Source: Syntrophorhabdus sp. (lineage in GTDB: Bacteria; Desulfobacterota; BSN033; UBA1163). From it: 6,891 nt of DNA. The notes beneath the pieces were generated by a model. That model was not told the origin of the DNA. It saw nothing but the letters and a program-made list of their open reading frames with translations, and did not search any database. Of the stretch, positions 1,010 to 6,891 are shown piece after piece. Both the position numbers and the translations under genes were made by a program. Where the stretch lies: assembly GCA_020724025.1 (NCBI GenBank), contig DYHU01000211.1, forward strand, positions 1-6,891, written 5' to 3'. Every line of letters begins with the position of its first letter. The stretch's first letter is position 1.

Positions 1010-1290
1010 TGTCATTTAAGAATTAAAAGTGCACCGTTTTTTGTGGATTTAAAGTTTAAAAGTGCACACTTAATTTGTCTAAAATCGGCCATGGTAGGCT
1101 CGTTAACAAAGACATGAGAACCAGATGATGAAAACCAATATTTTCCCTCTCCCGCTGGCGGGAGAGGGTTGGGGTGAGGGTGGTCTCCAGGTTATTCCCC
1201 CTCACCTTTCTCCTCTCCCCGAGGGGAGAGGAGGTGATAGGGTGTGCAATTTTAAAGTTTAAACGGTGCACTTTTAAATTTTAGCTAACA
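1010..1290. mobile_element. 281-bp MITE-like non-autonomous element, possibly IS481-derived
   Basis: This element fills most of the 448-nt gene-free gap between the divergent bfr and molybdoenzyme genes. It starts TGTCATTTAAG and ends GCTAACA, so the tips are TGT...ACA. Long inverted repeats lie inside. AAAAGTGCACCGTTT (1025-1039) is matched exactly in reverse at 1261-1275. A second block at 1048-1069 pairs with 1242-1263 at 20 of 22 positions. The left arm carries about 10 extra bases between the blocks. The element is immediately flanked by GAAAAATTTTCTGTT (995-1009) and GCAAAATTTTCTGTT (1291-1305), a 14/15 direct repeat that reads as a target-site duplication. No transposase frame is present. 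TGT ends and long duplications are known in the IS481 family, so the parent could be of that type; this assignment is inference. Confidence 0.65.
1145..1237. repeat. Pair of REP-like palindromes inside the MITE-like element
   Basis: The first hairpin is CCCTCTCCCGC (1145-1155) with GCGGGAGAGGG (1158-1168). The second is TCCTCTCCCC (1211-1220) with GGGGAGAGGA (1223-1232), extended by TCACC (1202-1206) with GGTGA (1233-1237). The two units also face each other: GGTGAGGG (1173-1180) is the reverse complement of CCCTCACC (1199-1206). This is a mirror-image, BIME-like arrangement of the same repeat type as 284-331. Very stable structure is expected in RNA from either strand. Confidence 0.75.
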
Positions 1291-1327: not shown

Positions 1328-1356
1328 TTGTCAATCGGGCTTCAGAGTGTTAAAAA
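1328..1356 (+). promoter_or_regulatory. Possible promoter of the molybdoenzyme gene
   Basis: TTGTCA (1328-1333) and TAAAAA (1351-1356) are separated by 17 nt. Transcription would begin near 1363, leaving a short leader that contains the AAGGA ribosome site (1367-1371) before the ATG at 1379. The -10 box is only a fair match. The promoter lies downstream of the MITE-like element, so the element would not interrupt it. Confidence 0.3.
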
Positions 1357-1378
1357 TGACTGGAGAAAGGAAGAGGAA

Positions 1379-3463
1379 ATGATCGTTAAAACCTATTGTG
1401 CCAGGATGGATCACGGGGGTTGCGGAATTCTGGTTCACGTGGAGGATGGTAGAATTAAAAAGATCGAGGGCGATCCGGATTCCCCCTTAAACCAGGGAAC
1501 CATCTGCGCCAAAGGCCTTGCCCAGATCGAAAGACTGAACCATCCTGACCGTCTCACCTATCCGATGAAGCGAACAGGGGAAAGGGGAGAGGGAAAGTGG
1601 GCCCGTATCTCCTGGGACGAGGCGCTTGAGACCATTGCTAAAAAGATCGGTGAGACAATAGAGCGCGAAGGCCCGCAAGCCATCTCCTTTGCCCAGGGAA
1701 CGCCCAAAGGGTTGGAACTCTTCCTGATGATCCGGCTTGCCAATCTCCTTCGTATCCCCAATATCTCCACGCCCGGCAACATCTGTCACATGCCGAGGGA
1801 GACCGCATCCACACTCACCTGCGGCTTCTTTCCGGTTCCCGACTACGATCATCCCCCTTCCTCTGTCCTGGTCTGGGGAAGCAACCTCTTCCAGACGAAT
1901 GAAGAGGGGGTGATAGGCTCCCAGTTGAAAAGGGCTCTGGATCGCGGAGCCAAACTAATTGTAATCGATCCGAGAAAAACGACTGCCGCCTCCAGGGCAG
2001 ACCTCTGGATTCAACCCAGGCCTGGGACAGACCTATTTTTAGCGCTGGGAATGCTCAGGGTCATCATTGATGAGGAACTTTACGATCAAGGTTTTGTGGA
2101 AAATTGGACGAAAGGTTTTCCTGAATTGAGAGAACATCTCCGGCGCTATCCTCTCGAAAAAGTCTCAGAGATCACATGGGTCTCAAAAGACCATACCATT
2201 GAGGCAGCTCGCCTCTACGCCCGGACCAAACCCGCCTCTCTTCATTGGGGAAATGCCATCGAACATAATATTAACAGCTTCCAGTGCGCGAGGGCGCTGC
2301 TCATCCTCATGGCGATTACCGGGAATCTCGATGTCCCTGGCGGAAATGTAAACCGAGTGGGTCCGGCCGTTATGAGGCCCGGAGAATTGGTCCAGATCAA
2401 GAAATTTCCCGAGAAGAAAGAGAAGATCCTCAGCCCGGAATTCCGACTGGCAACGATGATGGGTTTTGTCCCCTCTCAATTGATCGTAAAGGCCATTCTC
2501 ACCGGAAAGCCTCATCCCATTCGTATGATGTATATTCAGGGCGGAAATCCCCTTCTCAGCTATGCCAATTCAAAAGAGACCTTTGAGGCTTTGAAAAGAT
2601 TGAGCTTCTTAGCCCTCTCGGAGATATTTTTAACCCCCACGGCCCAAATGGCTGATATCGTCCTGCCTGCGGCCACCAACCTGGAGTTCGATGACATCGG
2701 CCATTTCGGTCTTCCCCACGGGTTTATCCTGGCCCGGCCCAAGATCGTTGAACCGGTTGGGGAGTCCTGGCCCGATTCAAAAATCTTAAATGAACTGGGC
2801 CGACATCTTGGCCTCCGTCAATATTTCTGGAATGACCTCGGGGAATGCCTTGACGAAATTCTCAAACCCGCAGGGATGACTTATGACGACTTCAAGACCA
2901 TCGGTATTTTAAAGGGGAAGTGGGAATATCGGTCCTATGAAAAGAAGGGTTTTTCAACCCCTTCAGGAAAGATTGAAATCTACTCCGAACAATTGAAAAA
3001 GTGGGGATACGATCCCCTTCCCTGCTCTCTTGATCTCCCCGGACCTTCCGGAGAATCTCTCAAAGAGTATCCGCTCATCTTCACCTCTGCCAAAGACCCC
3101 TTTTTCTTCCATTCAGCCTACCGGAACATCCCCTCCCTTCGCAAACTCTCACCGGATCCCGTTCTCCTCATTCACCCTGACACTGCCTCGCAATCAGGGA
3201 TTGAAGAGGGGGATTGGGTCGCCGTAGAAACGGAGATGGGAACAATCCGGCAAAAGGCGAAATTGGATAAAGAGATCGATCCCCGGGTTATTATCCTCAG
3301 TTTTGGCTGGTGGTTTCCCGAGCGAAAGGATCTTGAACTCAGCGGTTGGAAAGAATCGAACCTCAATGTTCTGACAAATAACAACCCTCCCTATGAACCG
3401 GCGATCGGATCCACCCCCCTTCGAGCCATCCCCTGCCGCATCTATAAATCGAAACCCTTTTAA
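1379..3463 (+). CDS. Molybdopterin oxidoreductase, DMSO-reductase family, orphan catalytic subunit
   Basis: This 694-residue enzyme is predicted to bind a bis-molybdopterin guanine dinucleotide Mo or W centre and one N-terminal [4Fe-4S] cluster. I chose the ATG at 1379, with AAGGA 7 nt upstream; a TTG at 1328 would add 17 residues of non-family sequence. The Fe-S region has C7, C15 and C43 (CAKG) but Asp11 where the second Cys is expected. C136 in GNICHMPRE aligns with the C/U-H-x-P metal-ligand motif of formate dehydrogenase H, so Cys ligation of the metal is likely. The C-terminal dinucleotide-binding domain spans about 563-690. General layout and several motifs recall acetylene hydratase (730 aa), thiosulfate/polysulfide reductases and formate dehydrogenases, but the substrate cannot be assigned. 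There is no twin-arginine signal, so it is cytoplasmic. No electron-transfer or membrane subunit lies beside it; the nearest plus-strand gene is 250 nt away and unrelated. Confidence 0.9.
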   Translation: MIVKTYCARMDHGGCGILVHVEDGRIKKIEGDPDSPLNQGTICAKGLAQIERLNHPDRLTYPMKRTGERGEGKWARISWDEALETIAKKIGETIEREGPQAISFAQGTPKGLELFLMIRLANLLRIPNISTPGNICHMPRETASTLTCGFFPVPDYDHPPSSVLVWGSNLFQTNEEGVIGSQLKRALDRGAKLIVIDPRKTTAASRADLWIQPRPGTDLFLALGMLRVIIDEELYDQGFVENWTKGFPELREHLRRYPLEKVSEITWVSKDHTIEAARLYARTKPASLHWGNAIEHNINSFQCARALLILMAITGNLDVPGGNVNRVGPAVMRPGELVQIKKFPEKKEKILSPEFRLATMMGFVPSQLIVKAILTGKPHPIRMMYIQGGNPLLSYANSKETFEALKRLSFLALSEIFLTPTAQMADIVLPAATNLEFDDIGHFGLPHGFILARPKIVEPVGESWPDSKILNELGRHLGLRQYFWNDLGECLDEILKPAGMTYDDFKTIGILKGKWEYRSYEKKGFSTPSGKIEIYSEQLKKWGYDPLPCSLDLPGPSGESLKEYPLIFTSAKDPFFFHSAYRNIPSLRKLSPDPVLLIHPDTASQSGIEEGDWVAVETEMGTIRQKAKLDKEIDPRVIILSFGWWFPERKDLELSGWKESNLNVLTNNNPPYEPAIGSTPLRAIPCRIYKSKPF

Positions 3464-3531: not shown

Positions 3532-3586
3532 TGGAGGCGGGATAACCCCGCCTCCAATATAGGCGGGACAGGAATGTCCCGCCTAT
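3532..3586. repeat. Two tandem GC-rich hairpins
   Basis: Hairpin A pairs TGGAGGCGGG (3532-3541) with CCCGCCTCCA (3547-3556) around ATAAC. Hairpin B pairs ATAGGCGGGAC (3559-3569) perfectly with GTCCCGCCTAT (3576-3586) around AGGAAT. The arms share the GGCGGG core, so alternative pairings between A and B are possible, including with GTCCCGC at 3525-3531. They lie 69 nt or more beyond the molybdoenzyme stop and could limit read-through, but no T-run directly follows. This is a repeat type distinct from the CCCTCACC palindromes. Confidence 0.75.
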
Positions 3587-3661: not shown

Positions 3662-3689
3662 TTGACAATTTCGTGGAAACGGATAAAAT
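3662..3689 (+). promoter_or_regulatory. Sigma70-type promoter of the three-gene operon
   Basis: A consensus -35 box TTGACA (3662-3667) is followed after 16 nt by TAAAAT (3684-3689), one mismatch from the consensus -10. The start site would be near 3696, giving a leader of roughly 18 nt. This is the best promoter match in the window and suggests constitutive expression of the operon. No clear operator is visible. Confidence 0.6.
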
Positions 3690-3713: not shown

Positions 3714-4700
3714 ATGCATCTGAAAGCGCTGGTCACAGGAGGCACAGGATTTATCGGAAGTCATCTGGTTGAGGCCCTTCTCCAGAGAGAGGTCGAGGTC
3801 CGGTGCCTTGTCCGGAATAGAAGTGATTTAAAGTGGTTAAGAAACCTCCCCATCGAACTGGCGGATGGCGACTGCAGTGACAAGACCTCTTTGCAAGAAG
3901 CCGTAAAAGGAGTCGATCAGGTATTCCATCTGGCAGGCCTGACCAGGGCCCTCAAAGAGGAGGCCTACTTTGAGGTCAATGCAAACGGAACAGAGAACCT
4001 GATCCATGCCTGTCTTGAAATGAATCCCCATCTGAAGAAATTCGTCTATCTCTCAAGCCAGGCCGCCGCAGGTCCTTGTCAAAACGGGGGAAGGAAGAAG
4101 GAATCAGACCATTGCGAACCCGTCTCCTCCTATGGCAGGAGCAAACGGAAGGGAGAGGAGTTCTGCCTCGAACATGCCCATGAAATTCCCCTTGTCATCC
4201 TCCGGCCTTCCGCTGTCTATGGGCCAAGGGACAGGGATGTCTATGCCTTCTTTAAGATCCTCACCAAAAGAATCAAGCCCAATTTCTCCCGACAGGAACA
4301 GCACATCAGCCTCTGCTATGTCCAGGACATTGTGCAGGCCACTCTTCTGGCCTCGGATTCCAGGGAGTCAGGAGGGGAAATCTTCTTTCTCTCGGACGGT
4401 CACGATTACCGTCTTGATAAAATCGGCGATCTATTCGAAGAAGCTATGGAAATCCATGCCTATCGAATTCATATTCCGGGGTGGGTGATTTCCGGAGTCG
4501 CTTCTTTTTCGGAATTTCTCTCCAAGTTTTCCGGAAGACCTCCATTGATCAATAAGGGTAAAGTGGAGGAGATGATTCAGAAAAATTGGCTATGCGACAT
4601 CACAAAGGCTAAGACGCTTCTGGGATTCGAACCCCGGTTTTCCCTTGCGGAAGGAATAAAAATCACTTATGAATGGTATCGAAAAGAAAATTGGCTATAA
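3714..4700 (+). CDS. Extended SDR (NAD-dependent epimerase/dehydratase family), CerR-like ceramide reductase candidate
   Basis: This 328-residue Rossmann-fold oxidoreductase is of the extended short-chain dehydrogenase type. The N-terminal nucleotide motif is VTGGTGFIGSHL (G9, G12, G15), in the TGxxGxxG form. The active site shows S114/S115 (YLSS), Y140 and K144 (YGRSK), followed by RPSAVYGPRDRD near 164-175, typical of the family. No signal peptide or membrane helix is visible. The start is at ATG 3714 with a weak GGGGG ribosome site; the dinucleotide motif beginning at residue 7 confirms it. The stop lies 18 nt before the SPT start, so the two are co-transcribed. Alone it could act on sugar nucleotides, flavonols or sterols. 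Next to an SPT and a GNAT acyltransferase, it best fits CerR, which reduces the 3-keto group of 3-oxo-ceramide or 3-ketosphinganine in Caulobacter. The family is certain; the substrate is inferred from context. Confidence 0.9.
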   Translation: MHLKALVTGGTGFIGSHLVEALLQREVEVRCLVRNRSDLKWLRNLPIELADGDCSDKTSLQEAVKGVDQVFHLAGLTRALKEEAYFEVNANGTENLIHACLEMNPHLKKFVYLSSQAAAGPCQNGGRKKESDHCEPVSSYGRSKRKGEEFCLEHAHEIPLVILRPSAVYGPRDRDVYAFFKILTKRIKPNFSRQEQHISLCYVQDIVQATLLASDSRESGGEIFFLSDGHDYRLDKIGDLFEEAMEIHAYRIHIPGWVISGVASFSEFLSKFSGRPPLINKGKVEEMIQKNWLCDITKAKTLLGFEPRFSLAEGIKITYEWYRKENWL

Positions 4701-4718
4701 CATAGGATGAGGTGGGGT

Positions 4719-5900
4719 ATGGATGTCTTTGAGAAATGTGTGAAAGTTAATGAACAGTACCGAGAGGTCTTTGATAGCGGAAACTATTTTTTCTTTCGCA
4801 AGCTCGAATCCCCCCAGGATTCAGAGGTTATGGTAAATGGAAGACGTGTAATCATGGTCGGCTCCAACAACTATCTTGGCCTAACCAATCATCCAAGGGT
4901 GAAGGAGGCCGCCATCAAGGCCATCGAAAAATTCGGAAGTGGCTGTGCGGGATCACGCTTCCTCAACGGGAATCTCGAAATCCATGAGGAACTGGAGGCA
5001 AAGTTGGCCCGGTTTTTCCGAAAGGAGGCCGCCCTCGTCTTTGCCACTGGCTATCAGACCAATTTGGGCGCCATCTCCGCTCTGGTAGGAAGGAATGATG
5101 TGGCTATCATCGATAAATTTGACCATGCCAGCATCATCGATGGCTGTCGCCTCTCCTTCGGTCAGGTCAAGAAATTCCGTCACAATGACATGAAAGATCT
5201 GAAAAGGGTTCTGGAAGGAACGCAGGATAAAGGAAAATTGATCATTGTGGATGGTGTCTTCAGCATGGAGGGCGATATTGCCGATCTTCCCACGATTATC
5301 AGCCTAGCCAAGGAGTATGGCGCCAGGGTGATGGTTGATGATGCCCATGGCGTCGGAGTCCTGGGACGAGGAGGAAGAGGCACGGCAGAGCATTTTGGAC
5401 TGGAGAATGAAGTCGATATCATCATGGGCACCTATAGCAAATCCCTGGCGGCCATAGGAGGGTTTGTCGTTGCCTCATGGGAGGTGGTTAATTTTATCAA
5501 ACATACAGGCCGCTCCATGATCTTCAGCGCCAGTCTTCCGCCTGCGCTGGTTGCCTCCGTGAGCACGGCCCTGGACATCATTGAAGAACAACCCCAGCTC
5601 ATAACGCAACTCTGGAAAAATACAAGGAAGATGCTTCAGGGTTATAAGGAGCTGGGTTTTGATACCGGAACGAGTGAGACGCCCATCGTCCCCATCATCA
5701 TCGGCGACACCATGAAGGTTTACGGGATGTGCAAACTCCTCTTTGAAAACAATGTCTTCGTCAACCCGGTTGCCAGCCCTGCAGTCCCTCCCGGTAGAGA
5801 ACTCCTCAGAACGAGTTATATGGCCACCCATACGGAGGAACAGTTGGATCGAGTCCTGGATGCCTTCAAAAAGGTGGGAAAACAGATGGGCCTGATCTGA
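4719..5900 (+). CDS. spt: Serine palmitoyltransferase-like alpha-oxoamine synthase (PLP)
   Basis: This 393-residue fold-type I PLP enzyme of the alpha-oxoamine synthase family is predicted to join L-serine to a long-chain acyl thioester with loss of CO2, giving 3-ketosphinganine. I chose ATG 4719 because GAGGTG lies just before it; ATG 4707 would add four residues. Counting from 4719, H136 (FDHASIIDGC) stacks on PLP, D207 and H210 (VDDAHG) bind the cofactor, K241 (TYSKS) forms the Schiff base, and R364 (LLRTS) matches the substrate-binding Arg of Sphingomonas SPT. The segments FGSGCAGSRFLNGN and the C-terminal PAVPPGRELLRTSYMATHT resemble SPT more than 8-amino-7-oxononanoate synthase (BioF) or 2-amino-3-ketobutyrate ligase (Kbl). 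No bio genes or threonine dehydrogenase adjoin it. It is cytoplasmic and soluble, the middle gene of the operon. BioF or Kbl activity cannot be fully excluded from sequence alone. Confidence 0.85.
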   Translation: MDVFEKCVKVNEQYREVFDSGNYFFFRKLESPQDSEVMVNGRRVIMVGSNNYLGLTNHPRVKEAAIKAIEKFGSGCAGSRFLNGNLEIHEELEAKLARFFRKEAALVFATGYQTNLGAISALVGRNDVAIIDKFDHASIIDGCRLSFGQVKKFRHNDMKDLKRVLEGTQDKGKLIIVDGVFSMEGDIADLPTIISLAKEYGARVMVDDAHGVGVLGRGGRGTAEHFGLENEVDIIMGTYSKSLAAIGGFVVASWEVVNFIKHTGRSMIFSASLPPALVASVSTALDIIEEQPQLITQLWKNTRKMLQGYKELGFDTGTSETPIVPIIIGDTMKVYGMCKLLFENNVFVNPVASPAVPPGRELLRTSYMATHTEEQLDRVLDAFKKVGKQMGLI

Positions 5901-5914
5901 CGGAAACGAGCGGG

Positions 5915-6891
5915 ATGATAGCGCAAAAACTCACCCTTCAGGAGGTCAAGACCCGTCAGGACCTCATGGTCTTCATCAAATTCCCTTGGAGAGTTTATCA
6001 GGGAAACTCCTACTGGGTTCCGCCTCTCATTAAGGATCAACTCCAGAAATTTAGCCCAAAATCCCCCTTCCTCTCCCATGCGGAGATGATCCTTTTCCTC
6101 GCCTATCGGGGTGGAGAGACAGTGGGGAGGATTGCAGGCATCATCGATCGCCATTATATCGAGTTTCATCAGGAGAAGGTTGGGTTCTTCGGATTCTTTG
6201 AGTCAATCGAAGATGCTGAGGTGGCCCAGTTGCTTCTCTCATCCGTGGCGGCCTGGCTCAGGGAACGGGGAATGGAGAAGATGGCAGGCCCCATCAATCC
6301 TTCCACCAATGATGAATGCGGTCTTCTGATCGATGCCTTCGACTCCTCTCCCTGCCTCATGATGCCTTATAACCCTTCCTATTACCCCGCTCTGCTCGAA
6401 GATTTGGGTCTCCATAAGGTGATGGATCTCTACGCTTACTGGCTTGAAAAAGATATCTTTAACTATGACCGCCTGGACCGCATCACCGGCCGGATCCTGC
6501 ACAGAGAGCCCCGGCTCTCTGTGCGGCCGTTAAACCTTCGCCGTTTCGACGAGGAATTAAAGATCATCAAGGACATTTACAATAACTCATGGAGCAAGAA
6601 TTGGGGATTTGTTCCAATGACCGAAGAGGAGATTGACGATCTGGCAAAAAACCTTAAACCGATCATCGTTCCCGAGATTGTCCTCTTTGCCTACTGGGGA
6701 GAGACACCCGTTGGGTTTTCGGCCGCCCTTCCCGACTATAATGTCGTCCTCAAACACCTCAACGGGAAGCTGGGGCTTCTGGGGTCGATCAAGTTTCTCT
6801 ATTTTGCAAAAAAGATCAAGACCGTCCGGATCATGCTTCTGGGAGTGAAACATTCCTTCCAGAAAAGGGGCGTGGAAGGGCTCCTCTATAT
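5915..6891 (+). CDS. GNAT-fold acyltransferase, bacterial ceramide synthase (bCerS) candidate, 3'-truncated
   Basis: An open frame from ATG 5915 runs 325 codons to the window edge without a stop. It starts 14 nt after the SPT stop, behind a weak GAGCGGG ribosome site, and is clearly the third gene of the operon. It belongs to a large GNAT-superfamily group usually labelled N-acetyltransferase (YghO-like). Family features are WVPPL near residue 37, FFGFFES at 91-97, NPSTNDECG at 128-136 and MMPYNPSYYP at 149-158. The protein seems to hold two GNAT-like halves joined near residue 195, where the DNA carries a perfect palindrome (6499-6524). Beside SPT and a CerR-like SDR, it best fits bCerS, the GNAT-type enzyme that N-acylates 3-ketosphinganine in Caulobacter and is unrelated to eukaryotic ceramide synthase. 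No signal peptide is seen. The GNAT call is firm and the ceramide role inferred; only a few dozen residues are likely missing. Confidence 0.8.
   Translation, partial: MIAQKLTLQEVKTRQDLMVFIKFPWRVYQGNSYWVPPLIKDQLQKFSPKSPFLSHAEMILFLAYRGGETVGRIAGIIDRHYIEFHQEKVGFFGFFESIEDAEVAQLLLSSVAAWLRERGMEKMAGPINPSTNDECGLLIDAFDSSPCLMMPYNPSYYPALLEDLGLHKVMDLYAYWLEKDIFNYDRLDRITGRILHREPRLSVRPLNLRRFDEELKIIKDIYNNSWSKNWGFVPMTEEEIDDLAKNLKPIIVPEIVLFAYWGETPVGFSAALPDYNVVLKHLNGKLGLLGSIKFLYFAKKIKTVRIMLLGVKHSFQKRGVEGLLY
6499..6524. repeat. Perfect 12-bp inverted repeat inside the acyltransferase gene
   Basis: GCACAGAGAGCC (6499-6510) and GGCTCTCTGTGC (6513-6524) are exact reverse complements separated by CC. The palindrome is in frame and encodes part of LHREPRLSVRP, at the probable linker between the two GNAT halves. 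It would form a strong hairpin in the mRNA. It is not related to the intergenic REP-like palindromes. Confidence 0.8.

What the first reader, a model, noticed from the sequence alone, without database searches (positions are those of the whole stretch)
3714..6891. Compact cerR-spt-bcerS-like operon: probable bacterial sphingolipid (ceramide) synthesis outside Caulobacter
The sequence shows three co-directional genes with gaps of 18 and 14 nt behind one good promoter: an extended SDR, an SPT-like PLP enzyme with the full catalytic set (H136, D207, H210, K241, R364), and a GNAT-fold acyltransferase. In Caulobacter these three enzyme classes (CerR, SPT, bCerS) form the core ceramide pathway, where bCerS is thought to N-acylate 3-ketosphinganine before CerR reduces the keto group. 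Having all three in immediate succession is unlikely by chance. Caulobacter also uses a dedicated acyl carrier protein and an acyl-CoA synthetase gene; neither is in this window, and they may lie downstream. The inference is that this organism, likely a Deltaproteobacterium, makes ceramide-type membrane lipids.
Basis: partly seen in the sequence, partly recalled or inferred. Interest (0 to 1): 0.75.

Follow-up and report, generated by a model that had tools for sequence, protein, structure and literature searches.

The report
Bacterial ceramide-making gene operon
This stretch of an uncultured deltaproteobacterium-like genome carries the three core genes that bacteria use to build ceramides; the operon is of a known kind, but its relatives carry a possible ceramide head-group enzyme next door, and some other bacteria fuse two of its enzymes into one protein.

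Summary
In detail: cerR (3714-4700), spt (4719-5900) and bcerS (5915 to beyond 6891), co-directional, gaps 18 and 14 nt, behind a TTGACA-16-TAAAAT promoter whose -35 box is identical in four relatives. The PLP enzyme falls in the SPT clade (SH-aLRT 100), apart from Kbl and BioF. The GNAT protein is homologous along its length to E. coli YghO, the published bCerS orthologue. The reductase groups with operon SDRs, not HpnA. Of 38 SPT loci sampled in one phylum, 27 have bcerS, and 26 of these have all three genes within 5 kb. It is a new member of a known kind.

Two things go further. (1) Downstream, 14 of 14 close relatives carry not acp/aasR but a convergent PAP2_3 gene whose model best matches inositol phosphorylceramide synthase: a possible head-group enzyme. 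(2) SPT and bCerS are fused in one ORF in at least two lineages (78 full-length proteins), none with a CerR domain. That favours acylation before keto reduction, a debated order; in one fusion clade the acyltransferase half has lost conserved residues. Product lipid untested.

The parts
3662..3689 (+). sigma-70-like promoter TTGACA-16-TAAAAT of the operon
   Evidence: 11 of 12 matches; number of sites not above shuffles; TTGACA identical in 5 of 5 aligned upstream regions
3714..4700 (+). cerR-like extended SDR (predicted ketoceramide / 3-ketosphinganine reductase), 328 aa
   Evidence: PF01370 144 bits; 28% identity to the E. coli BL21 epi/CerR orthologue; tree places it in the 45-row operon-SDR clade, SH-aLRT 89, apart from HpnA-like SDRs; HpnA score 162.6 against cut-off 367.65
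4719..5900 (+). spt: serine palmitoyltransferase-clade alpha-oxoamine synthase, 393 aa (ORF open from 4707)
   Evidence: best PDB relatives are the SPTs 8guh/3a2b, 442.7 bits; SPT clade SH-aLRT 100; catalytic residues present
5915..6891 (+). bcerS: YghO/bCerS-family GNAT N-acyltransferase, first 325 aa of about 374; gene runs past the window end
   Evidence: 33% identity over 314 aligned positions to E. coli YghO; tblastn E 4e-56 over 96% of the query to a plasmid yghO; 94% to P0001 and 91% to P0002
3575..3603 (+). possible intrinsic terminator upstream of the operon promoter
   Evidence: 3 such sites found in the region against a shuffle mean of 1.5, so weak

Best explanation
The window carries a ceramide-synthesis operon of an uncultured deltaproteobacterium-like (probably Desulfobacterota/Thermodesulfobacteriota) organism. 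SPT condenses an amino acid (most likely L-serine) with a long-chain acyl thioester, probably acyl-CoA since no dedicated ACP gene was seen beside the operon in relatives, and gives a 3-keto long-chain base. The GNAT-fold bCerS N-acylates that base to a ketoceramide, and CerR then reduces the keto group. Shown here: gene identity by homology and two trees, and the conserved operon. Inferred: substrates, order of steps and product. A PAP2_3 gene next door in all 14 close relatives, not in the window itself, is inferred to add a phosphate-linked head group to the ceramide as the fungal IPC synthase Aur1 does (about 0.5 likely on its own).
For: PLP enzyme in a 72-of-82-row SPT clade (SH-aLRT 100) with the E. 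coli BL21 SPT, whose activity was assayed in PMC9386255 (passages), and 7 further rows that I labelled SPT by context or similarity; 5 Kbl and 3 BioF rows fall outside. Best solved relatives are SPTs. bCerS homologous along its length to YghO, listed with CC_1154 in PMC9386255. CerR tree. All three genes together in 11 of 14 close loci (L010 and L012 run into contig ends, L014 lacks spt there), in 26 of 27 phylum-sample loci with bcerS and in 24 of 66 other loci. SPT and bCerS fused in 78 full-length proteins, with CerR unlinked but present in the 3 fusion genomes checked.
Against: No lipid or enzyme data for this organism. All three NCBIfam SPT equivalog cut-offs are missed (555.6 against 640; 425.4 against 500; 346.9 against 670). 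A BioF/Kbl-named enzyme (330.2 bits) scores above the other SPT structures (311.4 or less). CerR support is moderate (SH-aLRT 89) and its identity to the E. coli CerR is 28%. I could not obtain the Caulobacter proteins, so the link to them runs through E. coli orthologues named in print. In 11 of 38 phylum-sample SPT loci no bcerS was found in the fetched stretch, and in 42 of 66 more distant bCerS loci the three genes are not all within 5 kb; some of these end at contig ends.
Confidence: 0.87

Rival explanations
1. The operon makes a related but different lipid: 1-deoxyceramide from alanine, or a sulfono/cysteate analogue, because the SPT-clade enzyme prefers another amino acid.
For: Ding et al. 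suggest that 1-deoxyceramides and sulfono-1-deoxyceramides in the upper euxinic Black Sea may come from Desulfobacterota and/or Bacteroidota (passages). I made no test of amino-acid choice.
Against: The structure named cysteate-C-fatty acyltransferase (28eh) scores 274.6 bits against 442.7 for the best SPT structures.
Confidence: 0.15
2. Reduction comes first, as in eukaryotes: CerR reduces 3-ketosphinganine to sphinganine and bCerS then acylates it.
For: Proposed for Caulobacter by another group, as told in the Discussion of PMC11087976 (read). The gene order cerR-spt-bcerS is neutral. In the first fusion clade the bCerS half may not be a normal bCerS.
Against: SPT-bCerS fusions arose at least twice, SPT first in all 27 and 52 full-length ones, and none of the 36 and 119 long proteins scanned has a CerR domain at E 1e-3 (SPT-CerR fusions were not searched for). 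CerR is a separate, unlinked gene in 3 of 3 fusion genomes of the second kind.
Confidence: 0.2
3. Not sphingolipid at all: a BioF/Kbl-type synthase with an HpnA-like sugar epimerase and an unrelated GNAT acetyltransferase.
For: Generic Pfam hits only; the best NCBIfam hit of the SDR is HpnA, and the PLP enzyme misses all equivalog cut-offs.
Against: Both trees; the conserved three-gene cluster; the YghO homology. Relatives' genomes have a Kbl-clade gene elsewhere (3 genomes put in the tree) beside an SDR that I take by eye for Tdh, and one has a BioF beside what look by eye like bioA and bioD.
Confidence: 0.03
4. The neighbouring PAP2_3 gene is an ordinary lipid phosphatase (PgpB/LpxE-like) whose adjacency is inherited synteny, not a head-group transferase.
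For: NCBIfam: LpxE outscores phosphoinositol-dihydroceramide synthase in 5 of 9 proteins, both far below cut-off. The only PDB sequence hit is a phosphatase, at E 0.22-0.73. The gene is convergent, not co-transcribed, in all 14 close loci, which share ancestry.
Confidence: 0.4

Closest known systems
spt-bcerS-cerR ceramide pathway (Caulobacter, E. coli BL21 yghO cluster)
   Same: same three enzyme families; clustered genes; catalytic SPT residues
   Different: no acpR or aasR seen beside the operon in relatives; SPT nearer to the Bacteroidota/delta subgroup; gene order cerR-spt-bcerS; PAP2_3 neighbour in relatives
Spt-like clusters of Black Sea MAGs (Ding et al. 2024, PMC11334938)
   Same: Spt-like proteins, with CerR and bCerS close by for part of them, in many phyla; Desulfobacterota among the Spt-like carriers
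   Different: the paper's text, as searched, has no hit for fused/fusion, PAP2 or inositol; it notes only that some Spt hits were part of longer proteins
Bacteroides thetaiotaomicron inositol-lipid cluster BT_1522-1526 (Heaver et al. 2022, PMC9246714)
   Same: BT_1522, likened there to AUR1, is needed for phosphoinositol dihydroceramide (passages); a MIPS domain gene is also present in 13 of 14 relatives here
   Different: here the PAP2_3 gene sits beside the ceramide operon and MIPS lies elsewhere; by eye no PI-synthase cluster around MIPS in 5 genomes
Fungal IPC synthase Aur1
   Same: best fold match over nearly the full length; His/His/Asp spacing 39 and 4 (H217, H256, D260 of the L007 protein), which equals yeast Aur1 as I recall it
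   Different: 16-17% identity; head-group donor unknown

Membership tests
Bacterial serine palmitoyltransferase (phylogenetic clade) | groups with SPTs, not with Kbl/BioF | tested here: met
   72-row clade, SH-aLRT 100, holds all 8 SPT references. Only the E. coli one is known to me from a call as assayed; Sphingomonas, Rubrobacter, Streptomyces and Aureispira were labelled by gene context, the three Bacteroidota rows by similarity. SPT best in PDB
Bacterial serine palmitoyltransferase (phylogenetic clade) | PLP lysine, Asp/His pair, ring-stacking His, carboxylate-binding Arg (roles recalled) | tested here: met
   (K245, D211, H214, H140, R368 from ATG 4707)
NCBIfam SPT equivalog NF047600 (CFB type) | curated cut-off of 640 bits | tested here: not met
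   555.6 bits; hence not filed as that equivalog, only as SPT-clade
bCerS (YghO family) | full-length homology to a bCerS orthologue and conserved residues | tested here: met
   (33% over 314 positions, E 5e-71 for the pair); invariant columns. No bCerS tree was built, and I saw no assay of YghO itself
CerR | groups with CerR of ceramide clusters, apart from other extended SDRs | tested here: met
   45-row clade SH-aLRT 89 with 5 CerR references and 39 operon SDRs (chosen by place and by a profile that includes the window protein); HpnA-likes outside; moderate support
CerR | periplasmic location (as in Caulobacter, PMC11087976) | not tested
   no localisation test was run; the glycine motif GGTGFIG begins at residue 9 (sequence)
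Rhodobacterial five-gene ceramide system | dedicated AcpR and AasR near spt | tested here: not met
   none within 5 kb in 14 close and 38 phylum-sample loci, by phmmer with the E. coli proteins; only 4 and 16 of these (with bcerS) have 5 kb on both sides. Elsewhere in the genomes not excluded (1-6 ACP-type hits each)
HpnA sugar epimerase | TIGR03466 cut-off of 367.65 bits | tested here: not met
   162.6 bits
Ceramide producers | ceramide in the lipidome | not testable with these tools
   -
Phosphoinositol dihydroceramide synthase NF052609 (PAP2_3 neighbour in relatives) | curated cut-off of 480 bits | tested here: not met
   19.3-34.5 bits in 9 proteins; claimed only as Aur1-like in fold, not as a member

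The most novel reading that the evidence does not exclude
In anaerobic Desulfobacterota-type bacteria this operon feeds a phospho-head-group branch: ketoceramide made by closely coupled SPT and bCerS is reduced by CerR and then converted by an Aur1-like PAP2_3 enzyme, encoded beside the operon, to a phosphosphingolipid (inositol- or other phosphoceramide). The recurrent SPT-bCerS fusion proteins of other lineages are single-chain ketoceramide synthases, which would settle that bacteria acylate before they reduce.
Probability: 0.45. Interest if true: 0.68.

Novelty: new member of a known kind. Interest (0 to 1): 0.45.

Why it matters
It adds a ceramide operon to an uncultured lineage near Deltaproteobacteria/Syntrophaceae MAGs; bacterial sphingolipids were lately reported as about 20% of the Black Sea sedimentary lipidome (PMC12619533, passages). 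It points to a candidate for the head-group step. Through the natural SPT-bCerS fusions it gives a direct way to test a question that PMC11087976 calls disputed, namely whether bacterial ceramide synthesis acylates before it reduces: express one chain and look for N-acyl-3-ketosphinganine.

Tried and rejected
Rejected: Kbl/BioF identity; HpnA identity; acp and acyl-CoA synthetase right downstream. MIPS as a specific marker: present in 13 of 14 relatives but also in 216 of 395 genomes of the phylum. The enrichment in SPT-positive genomes (39 of 47 against 177 of 348, p 3e-5) is confounded by kinship, so it is only weak support for an inositol head group. Around MIPS in 5 genomes I saw no PI-synthase cluster, judged by eye from ORF starts, without a domain search.

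Led nowhere: near-identity search of plasmids (no match); PDB sequence search with bCerS (nothing below E 1.6) and with the PAP2 protein and profile (only a phosphatase at E 0.73 and 0.22); AlphaFold model of bCerS (pLDDT 55; tandem-GNAT folds on top, low confidence). The Stankeviciute 2022 paper is not held, so what it says on fusions is unknown to me. That I found no report of the SPT-bCerS fusion or of the PAP2 link rests only on the listings of searches and on term searches inside PMC11334938, PMC11087976 and PMC11324152. An NCBI protein name (P0193) already calls one fusion bifunctional.

Results against my reading: in the first fusion clade the acyltransferase half has lost N132, E134, W226, N229 and W230 (26 of 27; the one that keeps them is P0155). 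The second clade keeps them (52 of 52). The stand-alone yardstick of 80 loci was found with the pattern WSKNWGF, so its invariance at 226-232 is partly by construction. LpxE outscores the inositol-ceramide model for 5 of 9 PAP2 proteins. In 11 of 38 SPT loci no bcerS was found near.

Rows dropped: one search left out 16 rows of the set to save time (13 crowded loci, E. coli BioF, Halobellus, the G009 BioF) and took 18 of the 31 database fusions plus the UBA1163 one; one search left out P0150, counted earlier. One search worked on picked ORFs and missed the PAP2 genes of L045, L141 and L149 that one search found.
Full report
WHAT IS THERE. The window has three co-directional genes behind one promoter: an extended SDR (3714-4700), a PLP-dependent alpha-oxoamine synthase (4719-5900, ORF open from 4707) and a GNAT-family protein that runs off the window end (5915-6891+, 325 of about 374 aa). 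The gaps of 18 and 14 nt are as stated. The TTGACA-16-TAAAAT promoter at 3662-3689 is no rarer than chance as a pattern, but its -35 box is identical in all five aligned upstream regions, window included.

THE PLP ENZYME IS SPT-CLADE. Its best solved relatives are the SPTs 8guh/3a2b (442.7 bits), ahead of an enzyme named BioF/Kbl (330.2), other SPTs (311.4 or less), Kbl (282.9 or less), a cysteate acyltransferase (274.6) and BioF (220 or less). In a tree of 82 proteins it lies in a 72-row clade (SH-aLRT 100) with all 8 SPT references, while 5 Kbl and 3 BioF rows lie outside. Of the 8 references only the E. coli BL21 SPT is known to me from a call as assayed (PMC9386255, passages); the others I labelled by gene context or by similarity. 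Three of the Kbl rows come from close relatives' own genomes, beside an SDR that I take by eye for Tdh. NCBIfam's SPT equivalog cut-offs are all missed, so I call it SPT-clade. By score it is nearer to the Bacteroidota/delta subgroup described in PMC9386255 than to the Caulobacter subgroup.

THE GNAT PROTEIN IS bCerS-FAMILY. NCBIfam names it not at all and Pfam only as a weak generic GNAT, but it aligns with E. coli YghO over 314 positions at 33% identity. YghO is listed with CC_1154 as the acyl-CoA N-acyltransferase of ceramide synthesis in PMC9386255. The E. coli BL21 cluster (yghO, fatty acyl-AMP ligase, epimerase, ACP, spt) was fetched as the reference. I could not reach the Caulobacter proteins themselves, and built no bCerS tree.

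THE SDR IS CerR-LIKE. HpnA is the best NCBIfam hit for this protein and also for the E. coli, Rubrobacter, Streptomyces and Aureispira operon SDRs, always far below cut-off. In a tree of 58 SDRs the window protein lies with 39 operon SDRs and 5 CerR references (SH-aLRT 89), and the HpnA-like SDRs of related genomes lie outside.

HOW CONSERVED. A scan of species genomes with an alignment of close bCerS gave 80 loci, the best of 195. The 14 closest (L007-L020) are titled Deltaproteobacteria, Syntrophaceae, Thermodesulfobacteriota, or uncultured bacterium/proteobacterium. Eleven of these 14 have all three genes within 5 kb. L010 and L012 run into contig ends, and L014 (UBA1163) lacks spt there but has one at the edge of another contig. 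Of 395 genomes of UBA1163's phylum, at least 47 have an SPT hit of 425 bits or more (two candidates scored per genome). Nine of these are the close group; I fetched the surroundings of the other 38. In 27 of the 38 bcerS was found, and 26 of these 27 have all three genes within 5 kb; in 11 no bcerS was seen in the fetched stretch. Among the other 66 bCerS loci, 24 have all three within 5 kb and 49 have SPT within 3 kb on the same strand.

FUSIONS AND THE ORDER OF STEPS. UBA1163 also encodes one 785-aa ORF with SPT (54% to the window's) followed by bCerS (41%). A database search with its bCerS half, which by its length rule sees only long proteins, gave 35 hits, 31 with both domains; 27 are full-length, query included. 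A second search from the most distant one, P0155, had 274 hits of which 120 are listed; of the 119 that I examined, 52 are full-length SPT-bCerS fusions and 66 are tandem bCerS-bCerS proteins. P0155 is in both sets, so there are 78 full-length fusions (each a 90%-identity cluster, but for the query). Of 19 fusions put in a tree of SPT parts, 18 form one clade (SH-aLRT 100), and P0155 lies among SPTs of loci titled Ignavibacteriales, Bacteroidetes and the like (99), so there were at least two origins. SPT catalytic residues are intact in 27 of 27 and, but for one H214Q, in 52 of 52. In the first clade the acyltransferase half has lost five conserved residues; the second keeps them in 52 of 52. 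None of the 36 and 119 proteins scanned has a CerR domain; SPT-CerR fusions were not searched for. In UBA1163's phylum only its own genome of 395 has an uninterrupted fusion. In the phylum of the genome of L040 (titled Bacteroidetes bacterium) 3 of 395 do, and 44 more genomes match along both halves (one of them only to residue 647) but through stop codons, i.e. as neighbouring genes. In these 3 genomes CerR is not near the fusion, but each has one clear CerR elsewhere (356, 328 and 311 bits; next best 186 or less). Uchendu et al. (PMC11087976; abstract and Discussion read) state that the order of acylation and reduction is disputed. Fusion of SPT to bCerS, at least twice, favours direct hand-over of the keto base to the acyltransferase, which is the order that those authors prefer. 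Fusion shows association, not order, so this is support and not proof.

WHAT IS KNOWN. Ding et al. 2024 (PMC11334938, passages) report Spt-like proteins in 1271 MAGs of 38 phyla, with CerR and bCerS close by for part of them, and connect Desulfobacterota and/or Bacteroidota with 1-deoxy- and sulfono-1-deoxyceramides. A later paper finds abundant sphingolipids in Black Sea sediment (PMC12619533, passages). The operon is thus a new member of a known kind. I found no mention of the fusion or of the PAP2_3 link in the searches named under Tried and rejected; that is a statement about the held library only.

Noticed in passing
L107:2262-4622 (-); P0121-P0149, P0151, P0152, P0155, P0158-P0204 and others: SPT and bCerS fused in one ORF in at least two lineages; in the first clade the bCerS half has lost N132, E134, W226, N229 and W230, so it may have a new acceptor or be inactive.
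   Followed up: yes
P0150; P0205-P0216 and others (66 of 119 examined): Tandem bCerS-bCerS proteins of about 770-850 aa, several named as Thermoguttaceae, Pirellulales or Planctomycetes; W226 is missing in all 66 first halves and in 65 of 66 second halves.
   Followed up: partly
L014:4260-6542 and L110:2197-3381: UBA1163 has cerR directly followed by bcerS with no spt between; an spt sits at the edge of another contig, so either a real rearrangement or an assembly break.
   Followed up: partly
window 3714-3725; L007, L008, L009, L013: The window's ATG at 3714 is not conserved; relatives show CTG or TTG at the position of window base 3720, which suggests a non-ATG start of cerR.
   Followed up: partly
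window 1010-1290: MITE-like stretch: inverted repeats 1010-1039/1261-1290 (83%) and 1050-1067/1266-1283 (94%) around GC-rich CCCTCTCCC-type repeats that also occur at 285-333.
   Followed up: no
window 3559-3586: Perfect 12-bp inverted repeat with a 4-nt loop in the intergenic stretch before the operon.
   Followed up: no
window 1328-3463: Molybdopterin oxidoreductase (below all equivalog cut-offs listed); among the 14 close loci a gene of like start and size (694-699 aa) lies just upstream of the operon in L007, L008, L009 and L013.
   Followed up: no
L028:11136-12056 and 307-aa ORFs after bcerS in L030, L033, L036, L037, L039, L041, L044: A class IV aminotransferase (PF01063, tested in L028 only) follows bcerS in loci titled Bacteroidetes; perhaps tied to branched-chain precursors.
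   Followed up: no
L116:6001-7215 (Priestia megaterium plasmid): SPT-clade enzyme, 54.6% identical to the window's, near an acyltransferase and a methyltransferase, with no annotated bCerS or CerR within 6 kb: possibly a different product.
   Followed up: no
L045:8700-11116, L067:6773-9272: A gene that looks by eye like fabH lies just beside bcerS, with a PAP2_3-profile hit within 5 kb and no SPT within 3 kb, in a Poribacteria and an Abyssobacteria MAG.
   Followed up: no
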